Source: Verrucomicrobiales bacterium
Lineage (GTDB): Bacteria; Verrucomicrobiota; Verrucomicrobiia; Verrucomicrobiales; DEV007
Assembly: GCA_029213195.1 (NCBI GenBank)
Contig: JARGNI010000040.1
Coordinates: forward strand, 1-52,392
Direction of reading: 5' to 3'
DNA: 52,392 bases
Position numbers and translations under genes: made by a program. A model generated the notes under the pieces. It did no database searches and was not told the DNA's origin. It saw nothing but the letters and a program-made list of their open reading frames with translations. Shown here in pieces: positions 3,146-37,997 of this stretch (positions are counted from its first letter, which is position 1; every line of letters starts with the position of its first letter).

Positions 3146-4060
3146 CTATTCCGCGGGTGCGGCGAAGGACTGCTGGTGAAACTTCATCAATTCGAGTCCG
3201 CGCTTTTCGTAGATCCCGGAGGCGGAATGAGCGACTCCTTCAACGATGAGCATTTCATGTGGGATCTCGAGCGTCTTGAGGTGCTCTGAAAACTTGAGAT
3301 TGAACTCGTAGTTGAAACCCTTCGTTCCCACCCAGAGGAGAATGGGCAGCTTGTCCTTGTCCTCGCGTTTTCCGTATTTGTCAGCGAGATCCCAGGCATT
3401 GTATCCGGGAGCAAAAACGACCCTTTCGCTCTCGGCTCCGTTGTTCTCCTGGATTCGCTTCTCCGGCTCGTATCCTGATCCTCCCGGCGCCGCCGAAACG
3501 AACAGCTCGGGATGCTGAAACATGATCCGAGTCGTTCCGCGTCCCCCTTGGCTGAAGCCCTCGATCGCAAGCTCTCGAGTTCGATAGGTCTCCTGGATAT
3601 GCGGGATGAGCTCTTTCACGAAGACATCTTCGCCCTGGCCATGGTCGATCTGCGGGTAGTTGTACCAGCTCATTGGTCCGCCATTGGGGAAAACGTAGAT
3701 GGTCGGCTGGATCTTTCCCGTCTCGATCGCCTTCGCGACATAGCTGGCGAGTTTGATGGATTTCTTCTCACTCCCAGGCCGGCCTCCATGAAGGTGGAAC
3801 ACGACGGGAAGACGACGATCGGGCTGACTTTCGTAAGCGGGAGGAAGGTAGATGAAGTAGCCGACCTCCACTTTCATCGAAGGACTCTGGAACGTCCCGT
3901 GCTGAAGGCCCTTGGGAAGATCTTTTCGGGAATCCAGGTTCTCGATCGAATTGACCCAGGAGAAAGGCGGCGTCTTCTTCTTCGCTTTTGTTTGGGCTGC
4001 GAGAGGTGAGCCGGTGAGAAAGGCAAGGGCGACAAAAAAGGAGGGGGCACTGAGCTTCAT
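3146..4060 (-). CDS. secreted alpha/beta-hydrolase esterase
   Basis: 304-residue exported hydrolase. The start at 4060 gives a clean signal peptide (MKLSAPSFFVALAFL then an A-x-A type site); a frame extension to 4102 adds 14 residues ahead of the signal and is less likely. The fold is shown by the oxyanion-hole strand VVFHLHGGRPG, the nucleophile elbow GFSQGG and a late catalytic His in GVAHSASG. The layout matches the esterase group related to carbohydrate esterase family 1 and feruloyl/acetyl-xylan esterases. It is convergent to the DUF58 gene (24-bp gap). In this sulfatase-rich genome a role in de-esterifying glycans is plausible, but that is inference. Confidence 0.85.
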   Translation of the reverse strand: MKLSAPSFFVALAFLTGSPLAAQTKAKKKTPPFSWVNSIENLDSRKDLPKGLQHGTFQSPSMKVEVGYFIYLPPAYESQPDRRLPVVFHLHGGRPGSEKKSIKLASYVAKAIETGKIQPTIYVFPNGGPMSWYNYPQIDHGQGEDVFVKELIPHIQETYRTRELAIEGFSQGGRGTTRIMFQHPELFVSAAPGGSGYEPEKRIQENNGAESERVVFAPGYNAWDLADKYGKREDKDKLPILLWVGTKGFNYEFNLKFSEHLKTLEIPHEMLIVEGVAHSASGIYEKRGLELMKFHQQSFAAPAE

Positions 4061-35258: not shown

Positions 35259-35384
35259 GGGCTGCGCGCCTCGGACTACGCGCCCCGGGCTACGCGCCCC
35301 GGGCTGCGCGCCTCGGGCTACGCGCCTCGGACTACGCGCCTCGGACTACGCGCCTCGGACTACGCGCCTCGGGCTACGCGCCGA
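35259..35384. repeat. 14-bp tandem repeat, nine units
   Basis: Nine contiguous units of GGRCTRCGCGCCYC fill 126 bp between two divergently transcribed genes. Three adjacent units (35329-35370) are identical GGACTACGCGCCTC; the others vary mostly at positions 3, 6 and 13. Because 14 is not a multiple of 3 and no homologous protein emerges, the array is not coding. Confidence 0.95.
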
Positions 35385-35461
35385 GGACCTCAAACTTTTT
35401 GGCATATTGAGAAAAATAAATGTCAACATCTTGCGATGCCCGGCAAACTAGAGGTGAACCC

Positions 35462-36016
35462 ATGAATCGCCCTTTCGAAATTCTTGCCTCCGAGTACCGA
35501 CCGATGATTGCGGCCTATCTGCGATCGCTGGTCGGTGGGGATTCCTACCTGGCCGAGGACCTGACCCAGGAGACGTTCCTCGCGGCCCATCAGTCGCTGT
35601 CCCAATTCGAGCAGGGAGGGAACTTCGGAGCCTGGCTGCGAGGCATTGCGAAGAACAAGGCTCGAATGCATTGGCGATCGGCTTCCCGCAAACCTCTGGT
35701 TGTCGACAGTCGAGTCGTCGAGGGGATCGACGAGGTCTTCGACGAGGTCTTCGACGAGGTCTTCGACGAACTCGATCGAGAAGAGGAAGAAGGCGATTGG
35801 TGGGGGGATCGTCGTGAGGCCCTGCGGTCGTGTGTGGATCAGCTCAGTCAATCCCTTCGAGCGGCTGTCGAGCAGGTCTACTCGAAAGATCAGTCTCTCG
35901 AAGAAGCGGCCGTGGTCCTCGATTCGACCCGCCTCGCCGTCGGGCAACGTCTTTCGCGGGCCCGCAATCTCATCCGAAAATGTGTCACCACCAAACTGGG
36001 AACGAGCCATGAGTGA
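35462..36016 (+). CDS. ECF RNA polymerase sigma factor
   Basis: 184 residues. Region 2 is EYRPMIAAYLRSLVGGD-SYLAEDLTQETFLAAH with FGAWLRGIAKNKARMHWR; region 4 is LSQSLRAAVEQVYSKDQSLEEAA with an HTH ending QRLSRARNLIRKCV. It resembles the Rhodopirellula/Verrucomicrobium type of small sigma-70 factor. ATG 35462 is preferred over an upstream in-frame start because AGAGGTG precedes it. The sigma2-sigma4 linker is very acidic, with DEVF repeated three times (12-bp DNA repeats). The stop overlaps the next gene's start by 8 nt, so the FecR-serpin protein is its presumed regulator. Confidence 0.93.
   Translation: MNRPFEILASEYRPMIAAYLRSLVGGDSYLAEDLTQETFLAAHQSLSQFEQGGNFGAWLRGIAKNKARMHWRSASRKPLVVDSRVVEGIDEVFDEVFDEVFDELDREEEEGDWWGDRREALRSCVDQLSQSLRAAVEQVYSKDQSLEEAAVVLDSTRLAVGQRLSRARNLIRKCVTTKLGTSHE
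35729..35764 (+). repeat. three 12-bp direct repeats in the sigma-factor linker
   Basis: GACGAGGTCTTC occurs three times in perfect tandem, followed by a partial unit. It encodes DEVF repeats and keeps the frame, so copy number could change without breaking the gene. Confidence 0.95.
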
Positions 36017-37997
36017 TTCCGAGACCGACAACCGAGTTTCTCCACCTGAAGAGGGTGACGGAGAGGAAGCACTTCGAGAATACGGCAGGCAACTTGCCTT
36101 GGATAGTCTTCTCGGGGATGCCTTCTCGGAACCCGCTTCCCAGGTCATCGAGATGCCCCGCCCCCCCCGCCGCCGGTTGGTGAGGTGGGCAGCGACGGCA
36201 GCGGCTGTGTTGGCGGTGTCAGGATTGATCCTCCTTTACCTGGGAACGCGAGGCCCTTCTCTCGATCCACGTTGGACGTTGGTTGATACGGGTGCTTCCC
36301 AATTCGAGATCCTGGCCCCCAACCGAATTCGGCTCATATCCGGGGAGCTGCGATTTGAGTCTCGTGAGCCCGCTGCTCTCACCGTGGAAACTCCGAATGC
36401 AATCGCGAGCGCCAAAGGTACGAAATTTCTCATCGGGCATCATTCTGCTCGACCCTCCTCACCCAATCCAAACCCAAGTGTATCTATGAACCCAAAACAA
36501 ATGACCCGAATGCTGGTCCTGGCCGGAATGGTCAGCCTGACCACCCAACAAGGAACGGTCGACGCCGGTCCTAACGAAGCGGCAATCGCCCTTCCTGGAA
36601 GTGAACCAATGAAGATCTCGGTCCAGGCGAATACGGACTTCGCTTTTGATCTCTACGCTCGATTGGTCGCGGAGAACCCGGAGAGCAACCTGGTATTCTC
36701 TCCTCATTCCATCAGCAACTCGCTGCTGATGGCGGCGGAGGGAGCTCGCGGCCTGACCGCGGATGAGATCGGACAATTGCTCGGATTCCCGGAGTCGCTT
36801 CGACGCATCGGAGAGGATGCCCAGATGATTCCCTGGGAGATGTCTCGTATGCGACTGGGGCAAGCCGAGATCAATGAGTTACTCAACGAGAAGACCGATG
36901 ACTTCGATTTACGAGTCGCCAACTCGATCTGGGGAGATCGATCTTATCCTTTCGACCCGAACTACGAAGAGACAATCAATGAAGCCTACGGAACCGGCGC
37001 GGTTCGGAAAGTCAGTTTCCGGTACAATGATGAGGGAGCGCGAGATGCGATCAATCAATGGGTCAGTAGAGAGACGGAAGGAATGATCACGGACTTGTTG
37101 GGAATGGATTCCCTCAACCCGGATACTCGAGTCGTCCTTGCGAATGCCATCTACCTCAAGGCCGACTGGATGACGCAGTTTGATCCGAATGACACCGATG
37201 GATATGAATTTACGCTCCAGAGCGGAGAGAAGGTTCGCCCATGGACAATGAAGGGGGAGGAGATGGATGAGGTGCGATACGCCGCTTTCGAAGAGGATGG
37301 CTTTGCCATGGTCGAGCTTCCCTACCGCGGGGATCGGCTTTCGATGCTGGTGCTGGCGCCGGATGCTCCGGATGGCCTCGCTGCGCTGGAAAAACAACTC
37401 AGCCCCGCCCGGGTGAAGGCGTGGATTTCTCAACTCAAGAAGACCCCGACGACAGTGATTCTCCCCCGGTTCACCCACCGCACGAGCATCACCCTGAACG
37501 ACACCCTCCGTGCCATGGGGATGGTAAGGGCCTTCGTCGCGCCTGATGAAGATGATGGCGCGGACTTCTCTGGAATCAGTTCGGAAGCAGCGGAGCAGAT
37601 TTTCATCCAGCTGGTGGCCCACCAGGCAGTCATCGAAGTCGGTGAGAAAGGAACGGTTGCCGCTGCTGCCACGGCGGCTGCCGGAGGAGCCCTCGGTCTC
37701 CCGAATCCTGAGTTTCCTATCTTTCGTGCCGATAGTCCCTTCCTCTATCTTATTCGCGACAACAAGAGCGGGGCCGTCCTCTTTCTCGGTCGGGTCATGG
37801 ATCCACGTTCACCGGATTCTGACAGTTCGACTGAGGACCTACTTGTGCCAGGAGATGCCGGTTCGGCAGAGGATCCGTTCGCGCCTCAAGGTGCTGGTTC
37901 GACCGAGGATCCGTTTCTATTTTCGCCACCAGGTGGTGCAGGTTCAGCCGAGGAGCCGTTTTCGGCAGGAGGGAGCCCCGGTGGCGGGGGGCGATGA
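36009..37997 (+). CDS. membrane-anchored FecR-like domain fused to a serpin
   Basis: 662 residues. Cytoplasmic N-terminus about 1-56; one membrane helix about 57-78; FecR-like domain about 95-200 (TVETPNAIASAKGTKF, then LVLAGMVSLTTQQGTVDAGP); a complete serpin about 205-600. Serpin signs are FAFDLYARL, NLVFSPHSISNSLLMAAEGA, VLANAIYLKADW, MVELPYRGDRLSMLVLAPD, LPRFTHRTSITLNDTLRAMGM and the end SPFLYLIRDNKSGAVLFLGRV. The hinge EKGTVAAAATAAAGGALG fits an inhibitory serpin; counting from P15 Gly548 puts P1 at Leu562. A GAGS(T/A)EDPF-like repeat tail follows. The start overlaps the sigma gene by 8 nt. An internal Met160 could mimic a separate start, but FecR sequence runs across it. Inferred role: anti-sigma that senses proteases. 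Confidence 0.9.
   Translation: MSDSETDNRVSPPEEGDGEEALREYGRQLALDSLLGDAFSEPASQVIEMPRPPRRRLVRWAATAAAVLAVSGLILLYLGTRGPSLDPRWTLVDTGASQFEILAPNRIRLISGELRFESREPAALTVETPNAIASAKGTKFLIGHHSARPSSPNPNPSVSMNPKQMTRMLVLAGMVSLTTQQGTVDAGPNEAAIALPGSEPMKISVQANTDFAFDLYARLVAENPESNLVFSPHSISNSLLMAAEGARGLTADEIGQLLGFPESLRRIGEDAQMIPWEMSRMRLGQAEINELLNEKTDDFDLRVANSIWGDRSYPFDPNYEETINEAYGTGAVRKVSFRYNDEGARDAINQWVSRETEGMITDLLGMDSLNPDTRVVLANAIYLKADWMTQFDPNDTDGYEFTLQSGEKVRPWTMKGEEMDEVRYAAFEEDGFAMVELPYRGDRLSMLVLAPDAPDGLAALEKQLSPARVKAWISQLKKTPTTVILPRFTHRTSITLNDTLRAMGMVRAFVAPDEDDGADFSGISSEAAEQIFIQLVAHQAVIEVGEKGTVAAAATAAAGGALGLPNPEFPIFRADSPFLYLIRDNKSGAVLFLGRVMDPRSPDSDSSTEDLLVPGDAGSAEDPFAPQGAGSTEDPFLFSPPGGAGSAEEPFSAGGSPGGGGR

What the first reader, a model, noticed from the sequence alone, without database searches (positions are those of the whole stretch)
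35462..37997. ECF sigma factor coupled to a FecR-serpin transmembrane protein: a possible protease-sensing switch
Seen: the sigma gene overlaps by 8 nt a gene for a cytoplasmic tail, one membrane helix, a FecR-like domain and a full-length serpin with an inhibitory-type hinge. Known: FecR-type proteins act as anti-sigma or signal-transfer partners of ECF factors, and serpins undergo a large irreversible change when a protease cuts the reactive loop. Inference: an external protease cutting the loop (predicted P1 Leu562) could alter the FecR domain and release or activate the sigma factor, making the serpin a one-shot sensor instead of, or besides, an inhibitor. I am not aware of this architecture being described.
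Basis: partly seen in the sequence, partly recalled or inferred. Interest (0 to 1): 0.92.

Follow-up and report, generated by a model that had tools for sequence, protein, structure and literature searches.

The report
Protease-trap sensor wired to sigma factor
A bacterial gene switch (an ECF sigma factor) is paired with a membrane protein whose outer part is a single-use protease trap (a serpin), so the cell can probably sense a protease attack and respond by making more of the trap.

Summary
An ECF sigma gene (35462-36016) overlaps by 8 nt a gene (36009-37997) for a cytoplasmic tail, one membrane helix, a FecR domain and a full serpin. It is a rare but recurrent family: 16 of 16 loci with an intact 5' end, in Verrucomicrobiota and Planctomycetota, have the overlapping sigma gene. 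The FecR part has the PupR fold (Z 14.2), with the serpin in place of PupR's second periplasmic subdomain. Sigma and tail co-vary independently of the serpin. Other serpin lineages joined ECF sigma factors at least twice. Two further features: (1) sigma genes of this subtype share a promoter-like element, TGTCAA-N14-CGGCAA or variants (8 of 8), suggesting autoregulation; (2) a conserved internal ATG opens a signal-peptide-like stretch inside FecR, with a Shine-Dalgarno in Planctomycete-type members and little RNA structure in Verrucomicrobial ones: possibly a second, secreted serpin. Best reading: a protease-consumption sensor that resupplies its own inhibitor. Architecture and pairing rest on comparison; sensing, signal path, autoregulation and dual product are inferred. 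No description was found in the papers searched.

The parts
35420..35446 (+). promoter-like element: ATGTCAA (-35-like, TGTCAA 35421-35426), 14-nt spacer, CGGCAA (-10-like, 35441-35446)
   Evidence: element or variants upstream of 8 of 8 subtype-A sigma genes, 15-23 nt before the start codon; only exact copy found in the held genome
35450..35456 (+). Shine-Dalgarno of the sigma gene (AGAGGTG)
   Evidence: sequence; duplex energy -10.1 for start 35462
35462..36016 (+). ECF sigma factor, 'subtype A' of this report, near the Rhodopirellula/Verrucomicrobium family TIGR02989
   Evidence: Pfam Sigma70_r2 E 1.9e-16; TIGR02989 120.1 bits, cut-off 124.55
36009..37997 (+). FecR-serpin transmembrane protein, 662 aa; overlaps the sigma gene by 8 nt
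36009..36188 (+). cytoplasmic tail (residues 1-60), predicted helix 19-39, motif EEALREYGRQLALDSLL
   Evidence: co-varies with sigma
36189..36245 (+). single membrane helix (residues about 61-79)
   Evidence: hydropathy
36270..36593 (+). FecR domain (residues about 88-195), interrupted by a variable insert at about 146-164
   Evidence: AF2 mean pLDDT 89, PupR fold Z 14.2; Pfam FecR
36486..36554 (+). internal ATG (Met160; second at Met165, 36501) and signal-peptide-like stretch that also forms a FecR strand
36615..37808 (+). serpin domain (residues 203-600)
   Evidence: Pfam E 7.9e-103; Z 52.9
37644..37739 (+). hinge and reactive loop (residues 546-577; Leu562 is P1 by count only)
   Evidence: alignment A4
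37818..37994 (+). C-terminal extension (residues 604-662) with GS[AT]E[DE]PF repeats, absent from the 10 relatives aligned, predicted disordered
   Evidence: alignment, pLDDT mostly under 50

Best explanation
A cell-surface signalling switch whose sensor is a suicide protease inhibitor. Shown by comparison: (1) the operon encodes an ECF sigma factor and, with overlapping start and stop codons, its FecR-type regulator; (2) the regulator has a cytoplasmic tail, a membrane helix, a PupR-like FecR domain and, in place of PupR's second periplasmic subdomain, a serpin with an inhibitory-type hinge. Inferred: (3) in the resting state the tail holds or tunes sigma; (4) a foreign or misplaced protease cuts the reactive loop, and the serpin's irreversible refolding, with or without the trapped protease, destabilises the neighbouring FecR domain; (5) stepwise proteolysis, ending with a site-2 protease, frees tail and sigma; (6) sigma transcribes its own operon from TGTCAA-N14-CGGCAA; (7) this resupplies the sensor and, by initiation at the internal ATG, a secreted free serpin. 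The device would thus measure consumption of a single-use inhibitor and replace it.
For: Overlapping sigma gene (1, 4 or 8 nt) in 16 of 16 intact loci across two phyla. Sigma and tail similarity correlate with serpin similarity held constant (partial rho 0.43, p 0.001), tail and serpin do not with sigma held constant (0.00, p 0.49), n = 15 loci. FecR fold = PupR, Z 14.2; apart from a second anti-sigma factor (Z 13.2) all other rows are at or below 4.3. In the same genome 11 of 12 FecR hits lie beside a sigma hit (by coordinates); of 10 FecR proteins scanned 5 carry LamG and 2 CBM96, so the C-terminus looks like a swappable sensor slot. Other serpin couplings: tail-TM-serpin in Acidimicrobiia (3 of the 20 loci read, which came from 36 matching genomes of 247) and one sigma-TM-serpin single chain; their serpins lie outside the clade that holds all 17 FecR-serpins (SH-aLRT 99). 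Hinge E.G[TS].AAA[AVI]T in 16 of 17 members with different loop centres. Promoter-like element or variants in 8 of 8 subtype-A loci; the one exact copy in each of G000, G049, G688 and G689 is at this operon. Internal ATG in 17 of 18 members; Shine-Dalgarno at 10 of 11 Planctomycete-type sites against 39 of 175 other Met codons, and stronger than in all 400 synonymous recodings; strand charge-free in 18 of 18, charged in the serpin-less FecR L053; little structure around the start in 6 Verrucomicrobial members. Peptidase M50 in 6 open frames of the genome, one of 534 aa with the strongest match.
Against: Nothing here is experimental. L076 has a degenerate hinge (ESGSTAFAHT) and several loops are rich in Pro/Gly, so not all members need be inhibitors. 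L053 keeps sigma and FecR without a serpin, so the pair can exist without it. The internal-start tests were partly post hoc: over all 18 sites the effect is weaker (9 of 18 at or below -5 against 20% of 306 other Met codons, p 0.003); the Planctomycete-type subset and the rule 'first Met of the cluster' were set after that. L075 lacks the internal ATG and the window's own internal ATGs have no Shine-Dalgarno; low RNA structure there may only reflect A/C-rich codons. Between L072 and L073 the insert-plus-strand segment is the least constrained (dN/dS 0.67; serpin 0.11). Both promoter hexamers are exact in only 4 of 8 loci, three of them close relatives (L071-L073). One-mismatch sites away from the operon are more numerous than in the reversed-pattern control (26 against 10 over 7 genomes), so other targets are not excluded. 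The family is rare: the phylum-wide draw of 387 genomes gave a FecR-containing match only in the window's own genome. Whether the tail inhibits or activates sigma is open.
Confidence: 0.55

Rival explanations
1. Cis-guard: the serpin inhibits the very protease that would cut the FecR domain (site-1). Sigma is released only when protease exceeds the serpin capacity; the serpin sets a threshold rather than transmitting its own refolding.
For: E. coli FecR is processed stepwise with a site-2 protease last (PMC8144685 abstract); inhibitory-type hinge in 16 of 17; the serpin is in cis with the substrate.
Against: Loop centres differ widely between members, which fits varied outside proteases better than one conserved processing protease. 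Neighbouring genes of the loci were not compared for a protease.
Confidence: 0.17
2. Ligand sensor: the serpin is a binding domain (as in hormone-binding serpins, recalled), used like LamG/CBM96 in the paralogues; proteolysis plays no part.
For: 7 of 10 scanned paralogues carry LamG or CBM96 domains; L076 hinge degenerate; some loops Pro/Gly-rich.
Against: Inhibitory-type hinge kept in 16 of 17 although the window's serpin is only 37-52% identical to the nine others compared.
Confidence: 0.13
3. Anchored shield: FecR and membrane helix only tether a protease inhibitor to the surface; sigma controls its expression but receives no signal from it.
For: Promoter-like element at the operon; some other serpins of these phyla look like lipoproteins (by eye) or are OmpA fusions.
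Against: Sigma-tail co-variation independent of the serpin; PupR fold; serpin-less sigma-FecR pair L053.
Confidence: 0.12
4. The internal ATG and signal-peptide-like strand are only a fossil of the secreted serpin gene that was fused to FecR; no short product is made. (Rival to step 7 only.)
For: Secreted or lipoprotein-like serpins sit in the same clade (15 of 32 rows); the segment does fold as a FecR strand; L075 lacks the ATG; the tests were partly post hoc.
Against: Shine-Dalgarno kept beyond synonymous expectation in a hypervariable insert (0 of 400); strand charge-free in 18 of 18 members but charged in the 9 paralogues examined and in L053.
Confidence: 0.4

Closest known systems
FecI/FecR and PupI/PupR cell-surface signalling (E. 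coli, Pseudomonas)
   Same: ECF sigma factor plus single-pass regulator with an N-terminal sigma-binding part and a FecR domain; PupR fold Z 14.2. PMC9249621 (passages seen): the PupR periplasmic part has subdomains 110-238 and 250-324, and both bind the PupB signalling domain.
   Different: The second subdomain is absent: only about 8 residues separate the last FecR strand from the first serpin helix. Neighbours were not systematically searched for a TonB receptor.
SigV/RsiV lysozyme receptor (Bacillus subtilis), PMC4183432, abstract seen
   Same: Anti-sigma factor that itself binds an attacking enzyme, then is degraded by regulated intramembrane proteolysis; the nearest functional precedent I know.
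   Different: Other enzyme class; a binder rather than a suicide substrate with built-in refolding; different domain (recalled).
ECF sigma plus FecR-LamG/CBM96 pairs in this genome (11 sigma-FecR pairs, the window's included)
   Same: Sigma hits to the same family, FecR protein next to them, varied ectodomain.
   Different: Serpin ectodomain; hydrophobic, charge-free FecR strand with an internal ATG.
Free prokaryotic serpins such as chloropin (8gxv)
   Same: Serpin fold.
   Different: Not coupled to a sigma factor (recalled). Spence et al. 2021 (PMC8233489): none of the terms fused, fusion, multidomain, N-terminal domain or Planctomyc occurs in its text, and transmembrane only in a reference title.
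IutY of Pseudomonas putida (sigma and periplasmic anti-sigma part in one chain; PMC9249621 passage)
   Same: Model for the single-chain sigma-TM-serpin of L062.
   Different: No serpin.
Bifidobacterial serpin controlled by the two-component system MprAB and induced by proteases (recalled, nothing seen)
   Same: Protease-induced serpin expression.
   Different: The serpin is the output there, not the sensor.

Membership tests
FecR-type sigma regulators (PF04773) | FecR domain by sequence | tested here: met
   25.6 bits on the segment, cut-off 24; whole protein 21.8, below cut-off; 10 of 11 family segments match at E 0.1 or better
FecR-type sigma regulators (PF04773) | FecR fold | tested here: met
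   PupR 6ovk Z 14.2, rmsd 2.2, 107 aligned; BDI_1681 Z 13.2; next 4.3
FecR-type sigma regulators (PF04773) | single membrane helix, N-terminus inside | tested here: met
   hydrophobic segment 61-79 with net +5 on the tail side; hydropathy only, no dedicated topology program
FecR-type sigma regulators (PF04773) | cognate ECF sigma gene adjacent | tested here: met
   overlap in 16 of 16 intact loci
FecR-type sigma regulators (PF04773) | tail binds sigma | not testable with these tools
   only indirect: co-variation
TonB-linked cell-surface signalling (FecR/PupR subclass) | second periplasmic subdomain as in PupR 250-324 | tested here: not met
   last FecR strand ends at 194 and the first serpin helix begins at 203
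TonB-linked cell-surface signalling (FecR/PupR subclass) | TonB-dependent receptor gene in the operon | not tested
   only some neighbouring ORFs of the window were scanned
Serpins (PF00079) | complete serpin domain and fold | tested here: met
   Pfam 1-370/370; Z 52.9
Inhibitory serpins | hinge P17-P8 consensus | tested here: met
   EKGTVAAAAT; 16 of 17 members fit E.G[TS].AAA[AVI]T; consensus recalled
Inhibitory serpins | covalent protease trapping | not testable with these tools
   needs assay
ECF sigma family TIGR02989 | score over curated cut-off | tested here: inconclusive
   120.1 against 124.55 bits; region 2 clear, region 4_2 24.5 against 25.7 bits

The most novel reading that the evidence does not exclude
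One gene makes two proteins: a membrane-bound FecR-serpin that reports its own destruction by a protease, and, from an internal start whose signal peptide doubles as a beta-strand of the FecR domain in the long form, a secreted free serpin. The sigma factor it releases acts first of all on this one operon, so the device is a closed loop that measures how much single-use inhibitor has been consumed and replaces it.
Probability: 0.35. Interest if true: 0.95.

Novelty: new variant of a known kind. Interest (0 to 1): 0.86.

Why it matters
It would be a case of a serpin used as a signalling receptor in bacteria, and would give a concrete answer to what some membrane-tethered bacterial serpins are for. 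It would extend the RsiV idea (an anti-sigma factor that senses an attacking enzyme) to suicide inhibitors, whose irreversible refolding is a natural memory. It offers a specific promoter and internal start to test, and three separate sigma-serpin layouts suggest that the solution is reachable repeatedly. As a tool, a cleavable-loop sensor with a swappable specificity could be useful for detecting proteases.

Tried and rejected
Frameshift or assembly artefact: rejected; the architecture recurs in independent genomes, one of them on a 7.1-Mb contig (G834).

Insert after GHH as the end of FecR: rejected; the part after it folds as FecR strands.

Viral or plasmid origin: in viral contigs 38 stretches matched a pattern and none encodes a relative; plasmids gave 18 records, none covering 80% of the query, the 10 shown annotated 'serpin family protein'.

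The first genome-contig scan, with the single protein, found no relative (118 pattern matches); the alignment query then worked.

Phylum-wide draw: of 387 genomes 65 match the FecR-plus-serpin-start profile, but only the window's own genome reaches the first FecR half; the others match from profile position 84 or later.

Regulon search: ATGTCAA-N14-CGGCAA with up to one mismatch gave 31 sites in 7 genomes: 4 exact (all at the operon) and 27 with one mismatch, one of which is the sigma promoter of G386. The reversed-pattern control gave 10. The excess is not explained. Of 14 one-mismatch loci read (none of the 12 of G946), 13 lie inside an open frame of 150 codons or more on one strand or the other, which is weak evidence in G+C-rich DNA, and one (L271) does not. 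A site shared by G049 and G689 lies in one conserved open frame. No second target was accepted. G350 and G946 have no exact copy even at the operon.

Other sigma subtypes: subtype-B upstream regions share another element (GCAAAC, CGGAAA, TTGTA at fixed spacing in L252, L253 and L254; looser in L079; only GCAAAC in L257). Subtype C and the two singles showed none by eye.

Solved-structure search by sequence with the FecR profile gave no match, although the fold search did.

FecR-serpin monophyly: not shown; the tree needs 6 changes, and one origin with losses is not excluded (quick method, SH-aLRT only).

GT self-cleavage as in FoxR (recalled): the GT pair is not conserved (GS, NT, GG, SA in members), so not adopted.

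Literature, all in one PMC library: serpin+FecR+sigma factor (0); serpin+FecR (7, none bacterial by title); serpin+Planctomycetes+sigma factor (0); two of prokaryotic serpin/bacterial serpin/domain architecture (7); ECF sigma factor+FecR+Planctomycetes+anti-sigma (1); three of FecR/ECF/LamG/Planctomycetes/extracytoplasmic function (60, 20 listed); two of serpin/Verrucomicrobia/membrane-anchored (455, 12 listed); ECF classification (3); FecR+serine protease inhibitor+sigma factor (0); anti-sigma+serpin (13, 12 listed). I judged the listed ones by title and abstract start and saw passages of PMC8233489, PMC7406223, PMC9249621, PMC6718151, PMC8103513 and PMC10059941, and abstracts of PMC4183432 and PMC8144685; no paper was read whole. 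Most subscription papers are not held, so absence is weak. Jogler 2012 was not held.
Full report
What is there. The sigma gene runs 35462-36016 and the second gene 36009-37997, overlapping by 8 nt. Pfam and NCBIfam identify an ECF sigma factor near TIGR02989 (120.1 bits, cut-off 124.55) and a complete serpin. FecR is weak by Pfam in the whole protein (21.8 bits, cut-off 24) and over the cut-off as a segment (25.6). AlphaFold2 on 34 aligned sequences gave a mean pLDDT of 77 with FecR strands on both sides of a variable insert; FecR alone, 11 sequences, reached 89. The FecR model matches PupR (Z 14.2) and a Parabacteroides anti-sigma factor (Z 13.2); all other rows shown are at 4.3 or less. The aligned PupR stretch, 127-242, is essentially the first of its two periplasmic subdomains (110-238 and 250-324; PMC9249621, passages); the serpin stands where the second would be. 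According to that passage both subdomains bind the receptor's signalling domain. For the serpin, the best row is Z 52.9, and several of the closest rows are cleaved or loop-inserted serpins, which says nothing about its state in the cell.

It is a family, and a rare one. A FecR-plus-serpin-start profile found relatives in named MAGs of Verrucomicrobiota and Planctomycetota (171 of 218 pattern matches encode relatives, the best 80 kept; the first eleven, L071-L081, carry FecR sequence). Surveys, all lower bounds because at most a few candidates per genome were scored and lists are capped: 3 of 384 genomes of the window's class show a full FecR-serpin (G000, G296, G350), with G386 keeping the FecR part only; G049 among 56 relatives; 1 of 387 in a phylum draw, the window's own; 7 of 347 in the class of a Blastopirellula MAG match both the FecR and the serpin part, out of 155 with any match. 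Of the loci read, 16 have an intact 5' end and a serpin (window, L071-L076, L078, L079, L081, L250-L255); in 16 of 16 an ECF sigma gene overlaps upstream by 1, 4 or 8 nt (one search prints 7 for L253 because no start was set, the GTG at 3190 gives 4). L072 and L073 are close relatives. Left out of this count: L077 (contig starts inside the gene), L257 (contig ends inside FecR, sigma present), L080 (broken gene) and L053 (no serpin). L079 is labelled Nealsonbacteria, but its assembly is 9.1 Mb, so the label is doubtful; I group it and L257, from the same assembly, with the Planctomycete-type members by similarity.

Sigma and tail belong together. Sigma factors fall into subtypes A (window, L071, L072, L073, L076, L250, L251), B (L079, L252, L253, L254), C (L075, L078, L255) and two singles (L074, L081). 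Tails follow: clearly in A (weakly for L251, 0.12-0.16) and B (0.28-0.50), partly in C (L078-L255 0.21, L075-L078 0.14, but L075-L255 0.06). Serpins do not: the L079 serpin is like those of L075 and L078 (0.68, 0.63), while its sigma and tail are like L252-L254. Partial Mantel, 15 loci (L073 dropped as near-copy): sigma-tail given serpin 0.43, p 0.001; tail-serpin given sigma 0.00, p 0.49; sigma-serpin given tail 0.25, p 0.007; sigma-FecR given serpin 0.22, p 0.02. L053 (G386) keeps a subtype-A sigma and tail with a FecR that ends about where the serpin would begin; a serpin-like scrap follows (tblastn E 1.2, weak).

The sensor slot. This genome has 12 FecR matches, of which 11 lie within about 1.2 kb of a TIGR02989-type sigma hit (compared by coordinates). 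Ten of the other FecR proteins were scanned (L182, without a sigma neighbour, was not): 5 have LamG, 2 CBM96, 3 no named ectodomain. The window is the one with a serpin. Serpins were coupled to ECF sigma factors elsewhere too: tail-TM-serpin without FecR in L082, L090 and L300, that is 3 of 20 loci read (36 of 247 genomes of that class have a match; only 20 loci were returned; the other 17 show no sigma match, and many look like lipoproteins by eye), and a single sigma-TM-serpin chain in L062. The serpins of L082, L090 and the L062 protein lie outside the clade that holds the 17 FecR-serpins and 15 others (SH-aLRT 99; quick tree of 64 rows).

Hinge and loop. The pattern E.G[TS].AAA[AVI]T is kept in 16 of 17 members; L076 is degenerate. 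Residues at the P1 position by count differ (Leu, Ala, Phe, Glu, Val, Lys, Arg and others; read), and several loops are rich in Pro and Gly. This fits different target proteases but is no proof of inhibition.

Promoter. Both hexamers are exact in 4 of 8 (window and the relatives L071-L073). In the last 120 nt of 7 loci the best shared 6-mer occurs in 6; the maximum in 500 mononucleotide shuffles was 5, reached 3 times. For ATGTCAA-N14-CGGCAA the one exact copy in each of G000, G049, G688 and G689 is at the operon; one-mismatch sites elsewhere number 26 in 7 genomes against 10 for the reversed-pattern control, an excess I cannot explain, so further targets are possible. The sigma therefore probably drives its own operon. 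The window's ATG at 35420 lies inside this element.

Internal start. A Met lies just before the FecR strand [TS]R.L.LAG in 17 of 18 FecR-serpin frames (L257 counted; L075 lacks it), and in L053. Over all 18 sites with a Met (L053 included) 9 have a Shine-Dalgarno energy at or below -5, against 20% of 306 other internal Met codons (p 0.003). After seeing this I restricted the test to the 11 Planctomycete-type genes, whose real starts mostly have a Shine-Dalgarno, and took the first Met of the cluster: 10 of 11 at or below -5, against 39 of 175 others (p 4e-6); observed mean -7.10, synonymous recodings -4.83, 0 of 400 as low. The strand has no charge in 18 of 18, but 1-4 charges in the 13 candidate stretches from 9 paralogues (L188 gave none; not every stretch need be the equivalent strand), and 3 in L053. 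In the window only 3 of 20 presumed ORF starts have a strong Shine-Dalgarno; there the six Verrucomicrobial internal starts are nearly unstructured (0 to -2.2 kcal/mol; median of 104 other Met codons -11.5; p 4e-5), which may also reflect codon composition. Between L072 and L073 the insert-plus-strand segment has the highest dN/dS (0.67; 12 and 6 changes), against 0.16 for the whole gene. A second secreted product is thus plausible in both groups, but the fossil reading stays open.

How it most likely works. Protease cuts the loop, the serpin refolds or traps, FecR is disturbed, proteolysis by steps frees the tail, sigma transcribes the operon, and inhibitor is resupplied. FecR of E. coli is processed in steps with RseP last (PMC8144685, abstract), and RsiV shows that an anti-sigma factor can itself be the receptor for an attacking enzyme (PMC4183432, abstract). 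The genome has site-2-protease-type genes (9 matches in 6 frames), as did all 14 control genomes, so this is permissive only. That the 59 N-terminal residues of E. coli FecR are essential for sigma activity (PMC7406223, passage) means the tail may be pro- rather than anti-sigma.

Novelty. Kind known (ECF sigma with FecR-type regulator), sensor new as far as the searches show (most subscription papers not held). Hence new variant of a known kind, of high interest because each step is testable.

Noticed in passing
L082 4246-6167, L090 744-2653, L300 818-2949: Actinomycetota/Acidimicrobiia loci with an ECF sigma gene overlapping (1, 1 and 4 nt) a short tail-TM-serpin protein without FecR: a separate sigma-serpin coupling.
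   Followed up: partly
L062 3204-5312: ECF sigma domain, membrane helix and serpin in one open frame of 703 aa (genome G388, same class as the window).
   Followed up: partly
L053 2742-3928: Sigma and FecR pair without a serpin, with a possible serpin relic downstream; its FecR strand is charged.
   Followed up: partly
L158 225-2622, L163 538-2890: Serpin gene directly downstream of, and same strand as, a larger sigma-70-like gene (weak match to the ECF profile) in two genomes of one genus.
   Followed up: no
L023 630-2643, L024 1489-3714, L032 622-2628: Serpin genes with an ECF-like sigma gene on the opposite strand at their 5' side.
   Followed up: no
L006 1495-3153, L007 964-2682: OmpA-domain plus serpin fusions in two genomes of the window's genus.
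   Followed up: no
L117 3543-6155, L143 4599-5909: Serpins preceded by ankyrin-like repeats (recognised by eye, no family scan).
   Followed up: no
L079, L252, L253, L254 upstream of sigma: A different upstream element (GCAAAC, CGGAAA, TTGTA at fixed spacing in three) for subtype-B sigma genes.
   Followed up: partly
window 35729-35770: In-frame repeat GACGAGGTCTTC encoding DEVFDEVFDEVFDE in the sigma linker; the close relatives L071-L073 have one copy.
   Followed up: no
window 35260-35385: Tandem G+C-rich repeat (gggctacgcgcctcgg type, by eye) just upstream of the promoter-like element.
   Followed up: no
window 37818-37994: C-terminal GS[AT]E[DE]PF repeats, not in the 10 relatives aligned.
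   Followed up: no
L080 3851-5093: Broken FecR-serpin-like gene in a Verrucomicrobial MAG; described only.
   Followed up: no
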